Virus record (IMG/VR): IMGVR_UViG_3300034072_001300
Location: 1-58,411 of that record
Origin: a virus
Length of the DNA: 58,411 nucleotides
Reading direction: 5' to 3' (one strand)
The translations under genes were made by a program, and so were the position numbers. Positions 400 through 40,181 of this stretch are shown here, in pieces. How positions within the stretch are numbered: position 1 is the first letter of the stretch; every line of letters starts with the position of its first letter. A model generated the notes under the pieces. The model saw only the letters and a program-made list of their open reading frames with translations, did not search any database and was not told the DNA's origin.

Positions 400-2886
400 T
401 TAATAGAACCCATCTGGTTCCATATTATATCCATTCCAAGTACTTTTTGGCATATATTCTTCATCTATATTTGTACCATCATCAAAACTCCCGATATTCA
501 GATATTCAGTAAATGAACTTTTATCTGTTTCGGTTCCTTCTACTTCTTCAGAATAAAGATTTTTAATTAAATCTTTCATATCATCAAAGTTTTTAGCATT
601 ACAAAATGGTGCGAATATTAATGCCAAACTCATAATCATATCATCGTGACAATTTTCATCTGCTTGATATTTATTATTAAGTAAAATAAATGTAAAAAAT
701 TCTTTTATGGTTTCTTTATCATTTATTTCTAAATTATTGTTTTCTATAAAGAGCTTCATTGTTTGTAAAATTAATTTTCTACTTTTACTTGATGTTCTAA
801 ATCCGGGATATTTTTTTCTACCTTTTGTTAAGTTAGTACTGTTTGAATTATCATTCTTATCATAATGTAAATTATCATAATCATAATCATTTTTCATTTG
901 ATCAGCTATACTTTGCCCTGCTCCCTCGTTGTTCTCTATGATTAAATATGGTAAATTATAATATTCGCACCAATCATTTATATATTCAGGCATTAGTAAA
1001 TAATCTATCTGTAATTGTGCTGAAGCAACTTGTTTAAATTTAAACCCTGTTATATCAATTATTTGCGCCGCAAATGCATCTTGACCATCTTTGGCTGGAT
1101 CAACTGCACAAATATATTGGTGTCCTTTTTCAGGGTATGCATAAATTTTTAATTTACCATCTCTAATTTCTAATGGTTCTTTTGAAGTAAATTCTTTTAA
1201 TTTCTCTGAACTAATTAGTGTATGTGAAGAACCAATTGCTTCATTTGCATAATTCTGATTAAAATATAATATACCATTTTTAGCAATAGTCTGTTCTTTA
1301 AATTCTTCGGGTGTCATTAAAGCGCCTTTTGAATTAAATCTCGGCACTCTTTGCCAATCTAAATCATAAAGAACAAAACCATTTGTACCTATAGTTAATA
1401 TTATTTTATAATTTTCATCATCTATAATTTCAATTTCTTTAAACAATCTTTCTTTTAATGATTCATTTATTGTTTTTTGATCTATTTTTGATATATCAAC
1501 ATAAATAATTTTTTCATAATCTGAATTATAATCTTTTAATAAACAATATTTTTTATTCTTTAGTTCAACTAATTTATCTCCTGACGCTTCAATAATTTTA
1601 TTATTTGAAGCTGATTTAGTAATTTCATACCAATGATTCATACCCTTCATAGTACTAATAATAATATTCTTTTTCCATGCCAATCCAGATTGTGAAGGCA
1701 TAATAGAATCAATAAACTCCAGCCAACGGTTAGATCTTATAAACGCTGCTTCATCAACGACTAAACAATTATGATGAGTAATATCATTAGAAATATATGA
1801 ATTACAATCTTGTACTTCAACTGGGTCGTAATAATATTTTTCACCATCATCTAAAATAATATTTGTGATTATTTTGCCTTTAATTTTATGATTAATCTTT
1901 AGGTTTTCTGCTTTTCTAAAAATTTTACCGGAGCTAGACTTACCAACTAATATCTGATGATTTTTTGTGCATTTTACTTCTGTAAAATCATTTAACTTTA
2001 AAATTATTCCAGTATTTATTGTTCTTCTTACACCTAAAAAATTCTTATAACCATCTTGTGTTTTTATTAAATATCTATTATTAAATTCATTATCTAACTT
2101 AGAATATATTTCTTCCAGAGATATTAATTTATAAGATTTATCAATTTTATCGTAAACTTCTACCGGTGAATCTCCGGTTAAACATGAAATTGTAAATCCT
2201 CTAAATGCGTCAGAACTTGGAACATCTGTTAGAATTCTCATTTTAGATTCATTTTCTATAGAACCTTTATTCCAAACAGTAGTACCTTGTTGCATCCAAA
2301 TTGGGATTTCTAATAACATATTTTTAGTTGTATTAAGAAATTCTCTTGCTTGTGCTCCTTTATTTCCTACTATTCCAATATTTAATTCTTTATTAAAACT
2401 ATACATCCAAGATAGGTAGATACCGGTCGAAACCGACTTTCCTGATTGTCGACCCATCTTACCTGCTATGTTCTCATGTTCATCAGGTAAAATTAATTCA
2501 ATAAATTCATTTTGATATTCCCTTAAATCAGGAAAGTTTACACCCTTTGGAGTTTTTATTTTTATATAATTATCTTTAAAATAATGAATATCATCTGAAC
2601 ATTTTTGAATCTCATGAATATGTATTGGAAATAAATTTATTTTTGTGTATGCTTTTTTTAATCCTCTATTACCATCAAAAGAAATCCTATTTCCAAATGC
2701 ATCTAAGTAATAGTTATCTTCATCCTTAGAAATATCCAAAATTTCTAGAGCCAAATGTTTTCCAGGATTACCAAAACTTCTTATTTCCTCAAGAAGTTCG
2801 GGTGTTATTTGATCTTTATTATTTTTAAGAAATTCAATAATCTCAGGTTTAAAAATTTCTTTTAATTTCTTTTCTTTATCTGACAT
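400..2886 (-). CDS. terL: terminase large subunit (T4 gp17-like) containing a mini-intein
   Basis: The motor that pumps DNA into the prohead and cuts the concatemer. The N-terminal ATPase has a Walker A motif GRQSGKS (145-151) and Walker B LVVDEAA (375-381); the coupling motif IIISTMKG follows (408-415). The C-terminal RNase H-like nuclease shows D596 (ICAVDPAKDG), E651 (YLIIENNEG) and D748/D749 (CHDDM). Residues 235-373 are an intein splitting the segment between AFRGFTIS and CLVVDEAA. Removing it leaves about 689 residues. A second stretch, about 428-500, after the coupling motif also looks inserted compared with T4 gp17, which passes quickly there to the nuclease linker. The start ATG lies inside the upstream gene (25-base overlap), so translation is probably coupled. 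A late promoter motif lies before that upstream gene. Confidence 0.93.
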   Translation of the reverse strand: MSDKEKKLKEIFKPEIIEFLKNNKDQITPELLEEIRSFGNPGKHLALEILDISKDEDNYYLDAFGNRISFDGNRGLKKAYTKINLFPIHIHEIQKCSDDIHYFKDNYIKIKTPKGVNFPDLREYQNEFIELILPDEHENIAGKMGRQSGKSVSTGIYLSWMYSFNKELNIGIVGNKGAQAREFLNTTKNMLLEIPIWMQQGTTVWNKGSIENESKMRILTDVPSSDAFRGFTISCLTGDSPVEVYDKIDKSYKLISLEEIYSKLDNEFNNRYLIKTQDGYKNFLGVRRTINTGIILKLNDFTEVKCTKNHQILVGKSSSGKIFRKAENLKINHKIKGKIITNIILDDGEKYYYDPVEVQDCNSYISNDITHHNCLVVDEAAFIRSNRWLEFIDSIMPSQSGLAWKKNIIISTMKGMNHWYEITKSASNNKIIEASGDKLVELKNKKYCLLKDYNSDYEKIIYVDISKIDQKTINESLKERLFKEIEIIDDENYKIILTIGTNGFVLYDLDWQRVPRFNSKGALMTPEEFKEQTIAKNGILYFNQNYANEAIGSSHTLISSEKLKEFTSKEPLEIRDGKLKIYAYPEKGHQYICAVDPAKDGQDAFAAQIIDITGFKFKQVASAQLQIDYLLMPEYINDWCEYYNLPYLIIENNEGAGQSIADQMKNDYDYDNLHYDKNDNSNSTNLTKGRKKYPGFRTSSKSRKLILQTMKLFIENNNLEINDKETIKEFFTFILLNNKYQADENCHDDMIMSLALIFAPFCNAKNFDDMKDLIKNLYSEEVEGTETDKSSFTEYLNIGSFDDGTNIDEEYMPKSTWNGYNMEPDGFY
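1768..2184 (-). other. mini-intein within terminase (139 aa)
   Basis: This in-frame insertion has the parts of a self-splicing intein. Block A begins with Cys235 (CLTGDSPVEV). Block B is CTKNHQILV with T307 and H310. Block F is around DPVEVQDCNSYISND. Block G ends HHN (371-373) and is followed by Cys374 as the +1 nucleophile. The distance from block B to block F is too short for a LAGLIDADG or HNH homing domain, so this is a splicing-only mini-intein. It sits directly before the Walker B strand, so an unspliced motor should be inactive. All expected catalytic residues are present, so splicing is likely. Confidence 0.93.
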
Positions 2887-3602
2887 AGTTTACCTTTAAA
2901 TAAATTTTTAAAGACATTTATTATTTTTTGTGTTAATGATATAGATTTTTGTGTGTTTTTATATAAGTACTCAGGTTTTTTAAATATTGGTTCACCAAGT
3001 TTTACAATTTTATATTCTGAATTTATGCACATTGATGGAACTACTGAATCTAAAAATTTAGTATAATCTGTATTTGCTTTATTTTCTAAAATATACAATT
3101 GTGTTAATCCGAATCCTCTAAATGCTTTTTCATCTATATTATCAAATATTAATTTATTTGATCCTAATTCTATAGATGATTTTAGAAATTTTCCTTTACT
3201 TTTAAAGAATTTTGGTAATTCATTATATATTTTTTTAATATTAGCTATTTCTTCAGAACACAAATTTGCATCACCAGCAACACCAATAATTTCATTTATT
3301 TCAAAAATTAGAGTATGTAAAATACATACTCTTGTAGCAACTGACTTGTATTCATTCATTTCTAAGTTAATTTCAGAAATTTTATTATTTTGTACAAAAA
3401 TAATTATTTCGTCTTGTGACTCAATTTTGTCTAAATTAATCAAATAATTATCTTTAAAGTAAATAATATCATTTTTGCAAATTTCTAATTCTTCTTTTAA
3501 TAATTCTGCATTTACTTTTTTACTAAGTAATTTATTTGCTTCAAGTTTTCCATCAATTCCTTTATTTCTTAGATTAAGTAATTCAGTTTCTGTTAATTTC
3601 AT
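2862..3602 (-). CDS. degenerate paralogue of the terminase ATPase domain
   Basis: A 246-residue protein that lines up with the ATPase half of the neighbouring terminase. CKNDIIYFKDNYL (42-54) matches CSDDIHYFKDNYI. NEYKSVATRVCILHTLIFE (83-101) matches the Walker A region RQSGKSVSTGIYLSWMYSF. IIGVAGDANLCSEEIANI matches IGIVGNKGAQAREFLNTT. KAFRGFG (159-165) matches DAFRGFT. ILENKANTDYTKFLDSVVPSM (171-191) matches LVVDEAAFIRSNRWLEFIDSIMPSQ. Both Walker motifs are lost (the P-loop GRQSGKS becomes MNEYKS; DEAA becomes ENKA), the nuclease domain is absent, and there is no intein. It is an intact frame, overlaps the terminase start, and occupies the place where T4 has the small terminase gp16. It could be a terminase regulator or subunit rather than a relic. 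Confidence 0.75.
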   Translation of the reverse strand: MKLTETELLNLRNKGIDGKLEANKLLSKKVNAELLKEELEICKNDIIYFKDNYLINLDKIESQDEIIIFVQNNKISEINLEMNEYKSVATRVCILHTLIFEINEIIGVAGDANLCSEEIANIKKIYNELPKFFKSKGKFLKSSIELGSNKLIFDNIDEKAFRGFGLTQLYILENKANTDYTKFLDSVVPSMCINSEYKIVKLGEPIFKKPEYLYKNTQKSISLTQKIINVFKNLFKGKLCQIKKRN

Positions 3603-31240: not shown

Positions 31241-32134
31241 ATGCTAGAAATAAATAAACCTTATGTGTATCGAATTAAAAATAAAACTACCGGTCAATTC
31301 TATTACGGCAGTAAATACTCAAAGGTTTGTTGTTATACAACATTTTGGAAAGACTACTTCACTAGTTCAGCAACAATTAGAAAATTAATTAAATTATATG
31401 GTAAAGATGATTGGGATATAAAAATATTAAAAACATATCAGACCGCTCGTGAAGCACTTTTAAATGAACAAAAATATATTAAAAGGTGTTTTAAAAGTAA
31501 ATATTCTTTAAATTTAAGATATTTTGAATACAATGGTGAATCTTTAGATGACTTAGATACTATAGAAAAAATGGTAATGACTAGAAAAATACCAGATGAA
31601 AATGGAAAAACTTCATATCTTATTGGGGGTAGAAAAACTGCTGATACTAAAAAATCAATCATTATGCCTGATGGGAGATCATTAATGCAAGTAACTGTTG
31701 ATAAAACTGCTCAAATTAGACACAATAGAGGTGATTATAAAAAATTATCTAAAGAAATGACCGGTGTAGGAAAGGGCATTTGTCCCGAAAGAAAAATCTG
31801 TGTGTATTGTGACGCTAACACGAATTTGGGAAATTATTTTAGATGGCATGGAGAAAACTGTAAAAAGAATCCAAATATAACTGAAGAACAATTAAAGAAA
31901 AGAGAACCTTGGAATAAGACTAAAGAAGATGGAACAACTAGAAAAGTCTCAGATGCAACTAGATTAAAGAATAAATTAGCTCAACAAAAACTTGTTAGTG
32001 CTTTTGATGTACAAACTTTAAAGTTTGTTAGAATAAATAAAGATATATTTAATGAATTCAAACATATTAGATATTATGGAACAACACATAGTAAAGTTAA
32101 GGAAATTTTAAAATTAAAGGAAATAAATGAATGA
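31241..32134 (+). CDS. GIY-YIG homing endonuclease 2
   Basis: The N-terminal GIY-YIG domain reads PYVYRIKNKTTGQFYYGSKYS, then DYFTSSATIRKLI and ILKTYQTAREALLNEQ. A zinc-finger-like CVYCDANTNLGNYFRWHGENC (C2HC) follows, then a basic DNA-binding tail. AAGGA precedes the ATG. It lies between the small membrane protein and the DHH phosphoesterase, overlapping the latter by 8 bases. It differs in length and C-terminal domain from the other copy, so the two are separate arrivals. Confidence 0.85.
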   Translation: MLEINKPYVYRIKNKTTGQFYYGSKYSKVCCYTTFWKDYFTSSATIRKLIKLYGKDDWDIKILKTYQTAREALLNEQKYIKRCFKSKYSLNLRYFEYNGESLDDLDTIEKMVMTRKIPDENGKTSYLIGGRKTADTKKSIIMPDGRSLMQVTVDKTAQIRHNRGDYKKLSKEMTGVGKGICPERKICVYCDANTNLGNYFRWHGENCKKNPNITEEQLKKREPWNKTKEDGTTRKVSDATRLKNKLAQQKLVSAFDVQTLKFVRINKDIFNEFKHIRYYGTTHSKVKEILKLKEINE

Positions 32135-37120: not shown

Positions 37121-38566
37121 ATGCAAAATATTAAAAATTTTGAAGAAAATAGAGTTATGCTAAGTGATTCTTACAAGTACAGTCACTATTTACAATATCC
37201 AAAAAGAACTGTAAATATGTATGATTATGCTGAAGCACGAAGCTTAAAAGAATATGATAAAACATTGTTCTTTGGTTTACAAATGATGTGGAAAAAGTAT
37301 TTTACTAAAAAAATAACAATTAAAGAAGTTGATGAAGCATCTATGTATGCTAAAGCTCACGGAATTCCGTTTAATTTAAAGGGTTGGAAAAGAATTGTTA
37401 GAAAGTACAAAGGTAGATTACCTGTTACTATTAAAGCTGTTCCAGAGGGAACTGTTATTCCGAATAAAATGGTTTTATTCACGGTTGAATTAACAATAAA
37501 TGATAAAGAAATTTTTTGGTTACCTTCTTGGTTAGAAACATTCTTAATGAAAGTTTGGTATACTTGTAATGTTGCCACAAGAAGTTATTTTGTTAAAGAA
37601 ATGTTATTAGAACAAGGAAAATTAACATCTGATAATTCATTTGTTGATTTCCAATTTCATAATTTTGGGGATAGAGGTTCAAGTTCGGTAGAATCTGCTG
37701 CTTTTGGTGGAGTTGCTCACTTAGCTTGTTTCAAAGGGACAGATAATTTTAATTGTTTAAGATATGCTCATTTACTTATGAATGAACCTATTGAAAATAT
37801 TGCATATAGTATCGCTGCATCAGAACATAGCTCAACAACAGCTTGGGCAAAAGATGGTGAATTTGATATGGTTATGAACCATTTAGAAAACAATAAAGGT
37901 AACCCTTTAATGGCTTCAGTTGCTGATTCATATGATGTATTTAATTTTACGGATAAAGTAACATCGGGTGAATTTAAAAGAAAAATTGAATCTGATGAAT
38001 ATCCAAAATTCATTGAAAGACCAGATAGTGGTTATGCACCTGATATTATTTCGGAGATGTTAAATATTCATGAGAAAAATGAAGTGAAATTCACTGAAAA
38101 TTCAAAAGGTTATAAAACATTTGATAAGTATGGCTTTATTTGGGGTGATGGTATTAAAATGAATACTATGGTTGATATTTTGACTACTCTTAGATTAAGA
38201 ATGTATTCAACTGAAAATCAAGCATTTGGATCAGGCGGTTGGTTAATGCAACAACACGATAGAGATACTTTAGGTTTTGCTATTAAATGCAGTAATATTA
38301 CTTTAGAAGATGGTTCAGAAATTGAAGTTTATAAAGATCCAATCACAGATCCGGGTAAAAAATCTAAAAAAGGTAAAGTTACAACATATTTTAATAGAGC
38401 AACAGATGAATTCTTTGTGGATATTATTGGTAATGAATCAATTGATTGTCCAGAAGTTCTTGAAACAGTTATTGAAAATGGAATTCTTGTAAAAGAAGTT
38501 ACATTATCTGAAGTTAGAAATAGAGTTGATAAACAATTGGCCGGTATTAAATTTGGGAATTTATAA
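37121..38566 (+). CDS. nadV: nicotinamide phosphoribosyltransferase (NadV)
   Basis: Joins nicotinamide to PRPP to make NMN. Family markers are present along the whole 481 residues: LSDSYKYSHYLQYP at the N-terminus, FHNFGDRGSSSVESAAFGGVAHL (the NAMPT active-site stretch), SIAASEHSSTTAWA with the conserved AxEHS, SVADSYDVFNF, RPDSGYAPDI, IWGDGI and AFGSGGWLMQQHDRDTLGFA. With the NMNAT-Nudix enzyme 0.6 kb downstream it gives a two-step route from nicotinamide to NAD+. AAGGAG precedes the ATG. Confidence 0.95.
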   Translation: MQNIKNFEENRVMLSDSYKYSHYLQYPKRTVNMYDYAEARSLKEYDKTLFFGLQMMWKKYFTKKITIKEVDEASMYAKAHGIPFNLKGWKRIVRKYKGRLPVTIKAVPEGTVIPNKMVLFTVELTINDKEIFWLPSWLETFLMKVWYTCNVATRSYFVKEMLLEQGKLTSDNSFVDFQFHNFGDRGSSSVESAAFGGVAHLACFKGTDNFNCLRYAHLLMNEPIENIAYSIAASEHSSTTAWAKDGEFDMVMNHLENNKGNPLMASVADSYDVFNFTDKVTSGEFKRKIESDEYPKFIERPDSGYAPDIISEMLNIHEKNEVKFTENSKGYKTFDKYGFIWGDGIKMNTMVDILTTLRLRMYSTENQAFGSGGWLMQQHDRDTLGFAIKCSNITLEDGSEIEVYKDPITDPGKKSKKGKVTTYFNRATDEFFVDIIGNESIDCPEVLETVIENGILVKEVTLSEVRNRVDKQLAGIKFGNL

Positions 38567-39122: not shown

Positions 39123-40181
39123 ATGAAAAAGAAAAAAGTAGCAATCTACATTGGTAGATTTGCTCCACCACACAAGGGGCATGAAGAAACAATCCAATAT
39201 TGTTTAAATAAATATGATGAAACTATAGTTTTTATTGGTTCACAAAATAAAAGAAGAACTTTAAAAAACCCATTTAAAGTAGATAATATTATAAAATGGA
39301 TATATAGATCTGTTAATTTTAATGACAGATTAATATGTAAGTCTATTAATGACTATTTATATTCTGATAATAAATGGATAGCACAAATTGAAGATTATGT
39401 GTATTCAATATTTAATAAAGATGAGTATGAATTTACAATTGTTGGTCATATCAAAGATGATTCAAGTTATTATTTAAGAATATTTCCAACTTGGAAAGTA
39501 GATTTAACACCTGAATTTGATAATGGTATTTCAGCAACAGATATTAGAAACATTATTTTTATGGAAGATGAAAGACATTTTGAAGTTCTTTTTGAACACA
39601 ATTGTAAACCGCATTTATCTGATAATGTTGCAAATGATATAATTGAATTCAGAAAAACACAAGAATTTAAAGATTTAATGCAAGAACAAACGTATTTTCA
39701 AAAAGAAGATGCTAAATTTGCAAATTATCCTTATAAAGATACTTTAAAATTTAACTGCTCAGATGCTGTCGTCGTTTGTGATGGTAATGTGCTTTTAATC
39801 GAAAGAACAAGAGCACCAGGAAAAGGAACTTGGGCATTACCAGGAGGTTTTGTTAATAAAAATGAAACTTATGAACAAGCCGCAATTAGAGAATTATTTG
39901 AAGAAACTTGTTTAAAGGTTCCTGAAAAGGTTTTAAAAGGTTCATTAAAAAGAAGTAAAATTTTCGATAGTCCTAAAAGAAATGAAGGGATTCCTAGAAT
40001 TACAAATGCATTTTACTTTGAAATTCAACCAGATTATAAAAATGGTTATCCTAAATTACCAAAAGTAAAAGGTTCCGATGATGCGGTTAATGCTAAATGG
40101 TTCAGCTTAGCTGAAGTAAGACATATGACATTATTTGATGATCACGCAGACATAATTGATTATTTCACGAATTCATATTAG
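39123..40181 (+). CDS. bifunctional NMN adenylyltransferase / Nudix hydrolase
   Basis: Residues 5-170 are a nucleotidyltransferase: IYIGRFAPPHKGHEETIQYC with the HxGH motif (17-20) and the late ISATDIRNI (like the ISSTxxR motif). They adenylate NMN to NAD+. Residues 205-345 are a Nudix domain: GGFVNKNETYEQAAIRELFEETCL, with all acidic residues of the box but Cys in place of the last Gly. The fused layout is known from NadM-Nudix proteins of bacteria and T4-like phages. With NadV it forms the NAD+ salvage pair. AGGGAG precedes the ATG. Confidence 0.92.
   Translation: MKKKKVAIYIGRFAPPHKGHEETIQYCLNKYDETIVFIGSQNKRRTLKNPFKVDNIIKWIYRSVNFNDRLICKSINDYLYSDNKWIAQIEDYVYSIFNKDEYEFTIVGHIKDDSSYYLRIFPTWKVDLTPEFDNGISATDIRNIIFMEDERHFEVLFEHNCKPHLSDNVANDIIEFRKTQEFKDLMQEQTYFQKEDAKFANYPYKDTLKFNCSDAVVVCDGNVLLIERTRAPGKGTWALPGGFVNKNETYEQAAIRELFEETCLKVPEKVLKGSLKRSKIFDSPKRNEGIPRITNAFYFEIQPDYKNGYPKLPKVKGSDDAVNAKWFSLAEVRHMTLFDDHADIIDYFTNSY

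What the first reader, a model, noticed from the sequence alone, without database searches (positions are those of the whole stretch)
1768..2184. Mini-intein splits the terminase Walker B motif
Cys235, T307-H310, HHN373 and Cys374 are all present in a 139-residue in-frame insertion directly before LVVDEAA. Inteins in phage terminases at ATPase motifs are known; a minimal one with no homing domain implies it is either vertically kept or mobilised in trans. Packaging motor activity would depend on splicing, which could act as a timing switch.
Basis: partly seen in the sequence, partly recalled or inferred. Interest (0 to 1): 0.7.

Follow-up and report, generated by a model that had tools for sequence, protein, structure and literature searches.

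The report
Mini-intein inside a phage packaging motor
A DNA-packaging motor gene of a T4-like phage carries a small self-removing protein insert next to its ATP-splitting site; it is a real intein of a known kind, and its nearest relatives are two-piece inteins with a homing nuclease gene between the halves, so this one is probably a version that lost that gene.

Summary
Confirmed. Window 1768-2184 (minus strand) encodes a 139-residue class-1-type mini-intein, C235-N373, in a T4-type large terminase (828-aa precursor; predicted 79.8-kDa spliced terminase and 16.1-kDa intein). All splicing residues are present. Stock intein profiles match only below their cut-offs, but a profile of related terminase inteins built without the window gives 2e-41. 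The predicted fold (pLDDT 95.5) is a complete Hint/intein fold, and related terminases have a length-exact empty site. The insert sits at the N-terminal edge of the Walker B strand (RGFTIS|CLVVDE).

Two IMG/VR contigs (L035, L070) carry the same intein at the same site, split after about 30 residues, with a T5orf172 (GIY-YIG) homing-endonuclease gene between the halves. Homologous nucleases sit in related split inteins two codons upstream (L049, L039, Campylobacter phage IBB_35). The window's intein is the contiguous, nuclease-free form. A sister case (L075) shows an intein re-joined after about 1.1 kb of nuclease DNA was deleted. Re-joining is the favoured origin here too, but the tree does not prove it. 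No endonuclease lies in or beside the intein. Nothing found supports a packaging timing switch. New member of a known kind.

The parts
400..2886 (-). Large terminase (T4 gp17 type) precursor, 828 aa, interrupted by the intein
   Evidence: ORF; PHROG 5989 terminase large subunit 6.3e-61 and phrog_2 1.9e-31; Pfam Terminase_6C 1.6e-5
2185..2886 (-). N-extein, residues 1-234, including the Walker A region
   Evidence: Alignment with intein-free terminases
1768..2184 (-). Mini-intein, residues 235-373 (139 aa)
   Evidence: Motifs, profile 2e-41, fold, empty-site relatives
2155..2184 (-). Intein block A, C235-LTGDSPVEV (first nucleophile Cys1)
   Evidence: Sequence; aligned with other terminase inteins
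1957..1968 (-). Intein block B, T307-K-N-H310
   Evidence: Sequence and alignment
1765..1776 (-). Intein block G and +1 residue, H371-H372-N373|C374
   Evidence: Sequence and alignment
2083..2094 (-). Four-residue joint (DNEF) at the place where the same-site relatives are split; contains an out-of-frame ATG one base off the C-half start codon of L035
   Evidence: an ATGAA at one of five offsets is expected by chance at about 0.036
2434..2451 (-). Walker A region R146-QSGKS151, uninterrupted here (an intein site in Campylobacter phages)
1750..1767 (-). Walker B strand C374-LVVDE379; C374 is the intein +1 residue
400..1767 (-). C-extein, residues 374-828 (rest of the ATPase domain and the nuclease domain)

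Best explanation
A cis-splicing class-1-type mini-intein. After translation, Cys1 (C235) attacks its own peptide bond, the N-extein passes to Cys+1 (C374), Asn139 (N373) cyclises with help from the penultimate His, and an S-to-N shift joins RGFTIS to CLVVDE, giving a 689-aa terminase. Without splicing, the Walker B strand and the ATPase would be disrupted, so packaging should depend on splicing (inferred). In origin it is the nuclease-free, contiguous form of an atypically split terminase intein whose close relatives carry a T5orf172 homing-endonuclease gene between a roughly 30-residue N-half and a roughly 105-residue C-half. Most likely that gene was lost and the halves re-joined. It is now kept because only exact loss is harmless, and it can move only if a nuclease supplied from elsewhere cuts an empty site. 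Shown by sequence and computation: motifs, fold, exact empty site, same-site split relatives with nuclease genes, re-joining in L075. Inferred: that it splices, that packaging needs it, the direction split-to-joined in this phage, present immobility.
For: All nucleophiles and block A/B/G residues are in place. A profile of 26 other terminase inteins, built without the window, matches it at 2.1e-41. CatC, the engineered consensus of GOS-TerL and AceL-TerL, matches at 3.9e-6. The AlphaFold2 model has mean pLDDT 95.5, and its best structural matches are inteins, including VidaL 6VGV at Z 18.1, 1.9 A over 132 residues. Relatives have the empty site at identical spacing. L035 (60% identical) and L070 (44%) carry the intein at the identical site, split, with a T5orf172 gene between the halves (Pfam 4.9e-12 and 7.5e-9). 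Homologous nucleases sit in the gap of L049, L039 and IBB_35. The window falls in a clade of eight Walker B-site inteins with 98/96 or 97/97 support and pairs with split L035 (95/85). L075 DNA matches the split L039 locus minus about 1.1 kb, with matching stretches from both ends of the nuclease gene.
Against: Curated profiles score below their cut-offs: Pfam Intein_splicing 22.0 against 35.8 bits, TIGR01445 16.2 against 24.5. The block F His of many inteins is Asn here (CNSYIS), though L035 shares this. Direction of change is not proven: a tree with the four split relatives held together without the window is not rejected (p-AU 0.075 and 0.10), and the pairing with L035 loses strong support when the two distant Walker A inteins are left out. 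The full-length precursor model was of low confidence in this region and says nothing. No splicing was observed.
Confidence: 0.9

Rival explanations
1. The contiguous mini-intein is the older state. The split, nuclease-bearing forms in L035, L070 and L049 arose later when a T5orf172 gene inserted at the same place in inteins that were still in one piece.
For: Trees with the split forms together are not rejected (p-AU 0.075 and 0.10). Contiguous inteins are common at the other terminase sites.
Against: The gap nucleases of L035, L070, L049, L039 and IBB_35 are homologous along their length, and those where the place could be compared sit at about the same point after 30-36 intein residues, which fits one old arrangement better than repeated insertion. 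In L075 the contiguous form contains DNA matching both ends of the nuclease gene, so re-joining does happen in this clade.
Confidence: 0.35
2. The insert is a decayed intein or an inert Hint-like domain that no longer splices, and the terminase works with it or is dead.
For: Sub-threshold matches to curated intein profiles and loss of the block F His.
Against: Every catalytic residue including Cys+1 is kept, the reading frame is open throughout, and the model is a full-length high-confidence Hint fold. The terminase nuclease part is nearly identical to that of a relative, L001.
Confidence: 0.05
3. Splicing is conditional and acts as a timing switch for packaging.
For: The insert is in an essential ATPase next to its catalytic motif; inteins in such places have been proposed as sensors (PMC5050341).
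Against: No regulatory feature was found. Relatives with an empty site, and relatives with inteins at other sites of the same protein, show that this site is not needed for control. Five tested mycobacteriophage terminase-type inteins spliced readily.
Confidence: 0.03

Closest known systems
AceL-TerL and GOS-TerL atypically split inteins, and their engineered consensus Cat (PMC11766414; PDB 6DSL)
   Same: Inteins of large terminases; detectable sequence similarity (3.9e-6 to CatC); the window's joint falls where those inteins are split (N-part of about 25-37 residues).
   Different: The window's intein is in one piece. Its site before Walker B differs from the FE|C site which I recall, without having tested it, as that of AceL-TerL.
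Split intein of Campylobacter phages vB_CcoM-IBB_35 and CP21 near Walker B (PMC3322345)
   Same: Same gene, same part of the ATPase, related intein (32-34% identity).
   Different: Split, with a T5orf172 gene (shown for IBB_35) between the halves, and inserted two codons upstream (RGYA|CNIIVVDE). The published account of IBB_35 speaks of an intein and an intron.
Contiguous terminase inteins of T4-like phages, e.g. Vibrio phage vB_VmeM-32
   Same: One-piece mini-intein of 142 aa in the terminase, 32% identical.
   Different: Inserted after the catalytic DE (DE|CAFI), six residues downstream of the window's site.
Terminase inteins of mycobacteriophages (PMC5050341)
   Same: Inteins in the terminase ATPase domain close to its functional motifs; representatives shown to splice.
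   Different: Mostly another terminase family (TerL1), some with their own homing-endonuclease domain inside the intein.
'Fractured genes': split inteins with a nuclease gene between the halves (Dassa et al. 2009, known here only as a cited reference)
   Same: Arrangement seen in the window's same-site relatives L035 and L070.
   Different: The window has neither the split nor the nuclease gene.

Membership tests
Class-1-type intein (Hint domain) | N-terminal Cys/Ser, block B TxxH, penultimate His, C-terminal Asn, +1 Cys/Ser/Thr | tested here: met
   C235, T307-H310, H372, N373, C374
Class-1-type intein (Hint domain) | Hint fold | tested here: met
   Model pLDDT 95.5; top PDB matches are inteins, Z up to 18.4
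Class-1-type intein (Hint domain) | Curated profile match above cut-off (an annotation threshold rather than a biological defining feature) | tested here: not met
   Pfam PF14890 22.0 against 35.8 bits; TIGR01445 16.2 against 24.5; a family-specific profile gives 2e-41
Class-1-type intein (Hint domain) | In-frame insertion with length-exact empty sites in homologues | tested here: met
Class-1-type intein (Hint domain) | Protein splicing demonstrated | not testable with these tools
   Needs expression
Mini-intein | No endonuclease domain inside the intein | tested here: met
   139 aa, all of it accounted for by the Hint fold
Atypically split terminase intein (AceL-TerL kind) | Sequence kinship | tested here: met
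   CatC 3.9e-6; clade with split terminase inteins
Atypically split terminase intein (AceL-TerL kind) | Encoded as two separate pieces | tested here: not met
   One open frame, 400-2886
Fractured-gene arrangement | Homing endonuclease gene between intein halves | tested here: not met
   None in the window's terminase; present in L035 and L070
T4-type large terminase | Profile match, Walker A/B and nuclease domain | tested here: met

The most novel reading that the evidence does not exclude
Atypically split inteins can revert in nature: when the homing-endonuclease gene between the halves is deleted, the two pieces re-join into one cis-splicing mini-intein. L075 shows it with matching remnants from both ends of the nuclease gene, and the window's intein is an independent, cleaner case.
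Probability: 0.5. Interest if true: 0.55.

Novelty: new member of a known kind. Interest (0 to 1): 0.4.

Why it matters
The short, disordered N-half of the atypically split terminase inteins is used for protein labelling, but how such inteins came to be split, and whether the split can be undone, is unclear. Here is a one-piece relative at the identical site, joined at the split point, next to split relatives with a homing endonuclease in the gap: a natural series for testing how splitting, nuclease gain and re-joining follow each other. It also shows that one terminase in one phage group is an intein hot spot with at least five insertion points.

Tried and rejected
Curated libraries alone (Pfam, NCBIfam) would have left the case open; they score below cut-off. 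A close-relative scan with the intein alone found nothing in IMG/VR, and an alignment of the C-halves had no stretch conserved enough to scan with. A search of the window for a second intein found none. An automatic table of sites by profile gaps proved unreliable, because matches overlapped across inserts; the junction listings were used instead. Group I or other intron families as cause of the broken relatives: no Rfam match in ten loci or the window. The full-length precursor structure was too poor to use. I considered whether the extra 70 or so residues in the terminase (about 429-497) are another intein; they have no splicing motifs, and relatives carry inserts of varying length there. 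The one genome-contig scan found a single distant relative.

Full report
What was checked. The terminase ORF lies on the minus strand at 2886-400 (828 aa). The reported insert is residues 235-373, exactly 1768-2184, with C235, T307-H310, HHN373 and C374 as described. None of 300,000 shuffles kept that set. The enzyme is a T4-type large terminase (PHROG 5989, 6e-61).

Is it an intein? Curated profiles match only below their cut-offs (Pfam Intein_splicing 22.0 against 35.8 bits, TIGR01445 16.2 against 24.5), so a standard annotation would miss it. Other evidence is strong. It is similar to CatC, the engineered consensus of GOS-TerL and AceL-TerL (3.9e-6; PMC11766414). A profile of terminase inteins built without the window matches at 2.1e-41. 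An AlphaFold2 model from 17 sequences has mean pLDDT 95.5. Foldseek's matches are almost all inteins, and the structural aligner gives VidaL (6VGV) Z 18.1, 1.9 A over 132 residues, and TliVMA Z 18.4. The 12-residue stretch from RG to DE is uninterrupted, at the same length, in many relatives.

Where it sits. The junction RGFTIS|CLVVDE lies before the first residue of the Walker B strand, four residues ahead of the catalytic D378-E379. It does not separate the acidic pair. The +1 Cys takes a position that is V, I or L in most empty relatives.

Relatives at the same site. A scan of IMG/VR with a terminase alignment gave 65 loci. L035 (RGFSIH|C...HHN|CAIIDE) and L070 (RGFTIS|C...HHN|CLVIDE) have the intein at the identical place, but split: an N-half of 30 or 33 residues ends with a stop, a separate gene follows, and the C-half starts with its own ATG. 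The gene in the gap is a T5orf172/MUG113 (GIY-YIG) nuclease. Homologous nucleases (33-45% identity, similar from end to end) lie in the gap of L049 and L039 and of Campylobacter phage IBB_35, whose inteins sit two codons upstream. T5orf172 genes are known phage homing endonucleases often found beside terminases (PMC10448857).

Contiguous or split, which came first? In the intein tree the window falls in a clade of eight Walker B-site inteins (98/96; 97/97) and beside split L035 (95/85). Without the two distant Walker A inteins the inner order is unresolved, and a tree holding the four split forms together is not rejected (p-AU 0.075; 0.10). Two further points favour re-joining. First, contiguous L075 is the sister of split L039 (97/90), and its DNA matches L039 up to about 23 bases past the nuclease start codon (82%) and again from about 45 bases before the nuclease stop codon (76%), with about 1.1 kb missing between. 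These outer stretches are short and AT-rich. Second, the window's joint is four residues (DNEF) exactly at the split point and holds an ATG one base off the position of the L035 C-half start codon; the chance of ATGAA at one of five offsets is about 0.036, so this is only suggestive.

Mobility and recombination. The closest relative, L001, lacks an intein at this site but has a mini-intein at another (FE|C, residues 349-485 of its protein). The two terminases are 82-100% identical in DNA after residue 560 and about 47-85% between residues 41 and 555; the change falls at L001's intein site. L001's ATPase part is nearest to Vibrio phages phiKT1024 and Va1 (71%), the window's to L040 and L065 (about 71-73%). 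This mosaic fits replacement of the ATPase segment by recombination, perhaps driven by homing; the direction is not known. No homing endonuclease lies in or beside the window's intein. A SegE-like GIY-YIG gene at 31241-32134 (Pfam 8.5e-6) is the only candidate seen, and nothing links it to this site; not every ORF of the window was scanned.

A crowded gene. In this group inteins occur at five points of the terminase: Walker A (RQ|S), RGxx|C, the window's site, DE|CAFI, and FE|C. L070 has three inteins in one terminase, as has CP21. Terminases are also the commonest intein hosts in mycobacteriophages, where all seven sites lie in the ATPase domain and five tested inteins spliced readily (PMC5050341).

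Verdict. The thing is a class-1-type mini-intein, a new member of a known kind at a site for which I found no annotated case among the top phage hits examined (and the regions read after them); records near the window's own genome may be left out there. The interesting part is its kinship with split, nuclease-bearing inteins and the likelihood that it was re-joined. The suggested timing switch has no support beyond plausibility. Splicing itself has not been shown. The 0.9 confidence is for the identity as a splicing-competent mini-intein and its kinship; the re-joined origin alone I put at about 0.5 to 0.6.

Noticed in passing
window 2862-3602 (-), overlapping the terminase start; homologue L001 537-1250: A 246-aa ORF that is a degenerate copy of the terminase ATPase domain (phrog_5989 2.2e-16) without a recognisable Walker A glycine pattern or Walker B acid pair. 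It is kept in L001 with dN 0.14, dS 0.59 (ratio about 0.24), suggesting it is under selection. It stands where T4-like phages carry the small terminase gene.
   Followed up: partly
window 1396-1602 (-), terminase residues about 429-497: Roughly 70 extra residues in the terminase between the STMKGMNH motif and the DLDWQRVPR motif. Relatives carry inserts of very different length and sequence here; L065 has the most similar one. Not an intein.
   Followed up: partly
L052, L077, L099, L102 (N-side) and L064, L066, L069, L091 (C-side): In several relatives the terminase reading frame breaks at that same variable place, without intein motifs and without an Rfam intron match in those searched; in L064, L066, L069 and L091 no N-terminal part was found in the roughly 3.5 kb held upstream. 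Possibly genes in pieces.
   Followed up: partly
L012 2681-3946 (IBB_35): The ORF annotated as hypothetical inside the IBB_35 terminase is a T5orf172 nuclease between the halves of a split intein; the paper describes an intein plus an intron in this gene (PMC3322345).
   Followed up: partly
window 31241-32134 (+): SegE-like GIY-YIG endonuclease gene, a candidate free-standing homing endonuclease.
   Followed up: partly
L001 5152-6462 (-): C-terminal part of another intein-like sequence (ending IIYHN|TLLM) in a replicative-helicase-like gene of the closest relative.
   Followed up: no
window 37121-38566 and 39123-40181 (+): Nicotinamide phosphoribosyltransferase and a cytidylyltransferase-NUDIX gene close together, suggesting a phage NAD salvage pathway.
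   Followed up: no
L105: The only relative found in the genome collection is on a 10-kb contig of a MAG labelled Helicobacter cetorum; with the Campylobacter phages this hints at, but does not show, a Campylobacterota host for the group.
   Followed up: no
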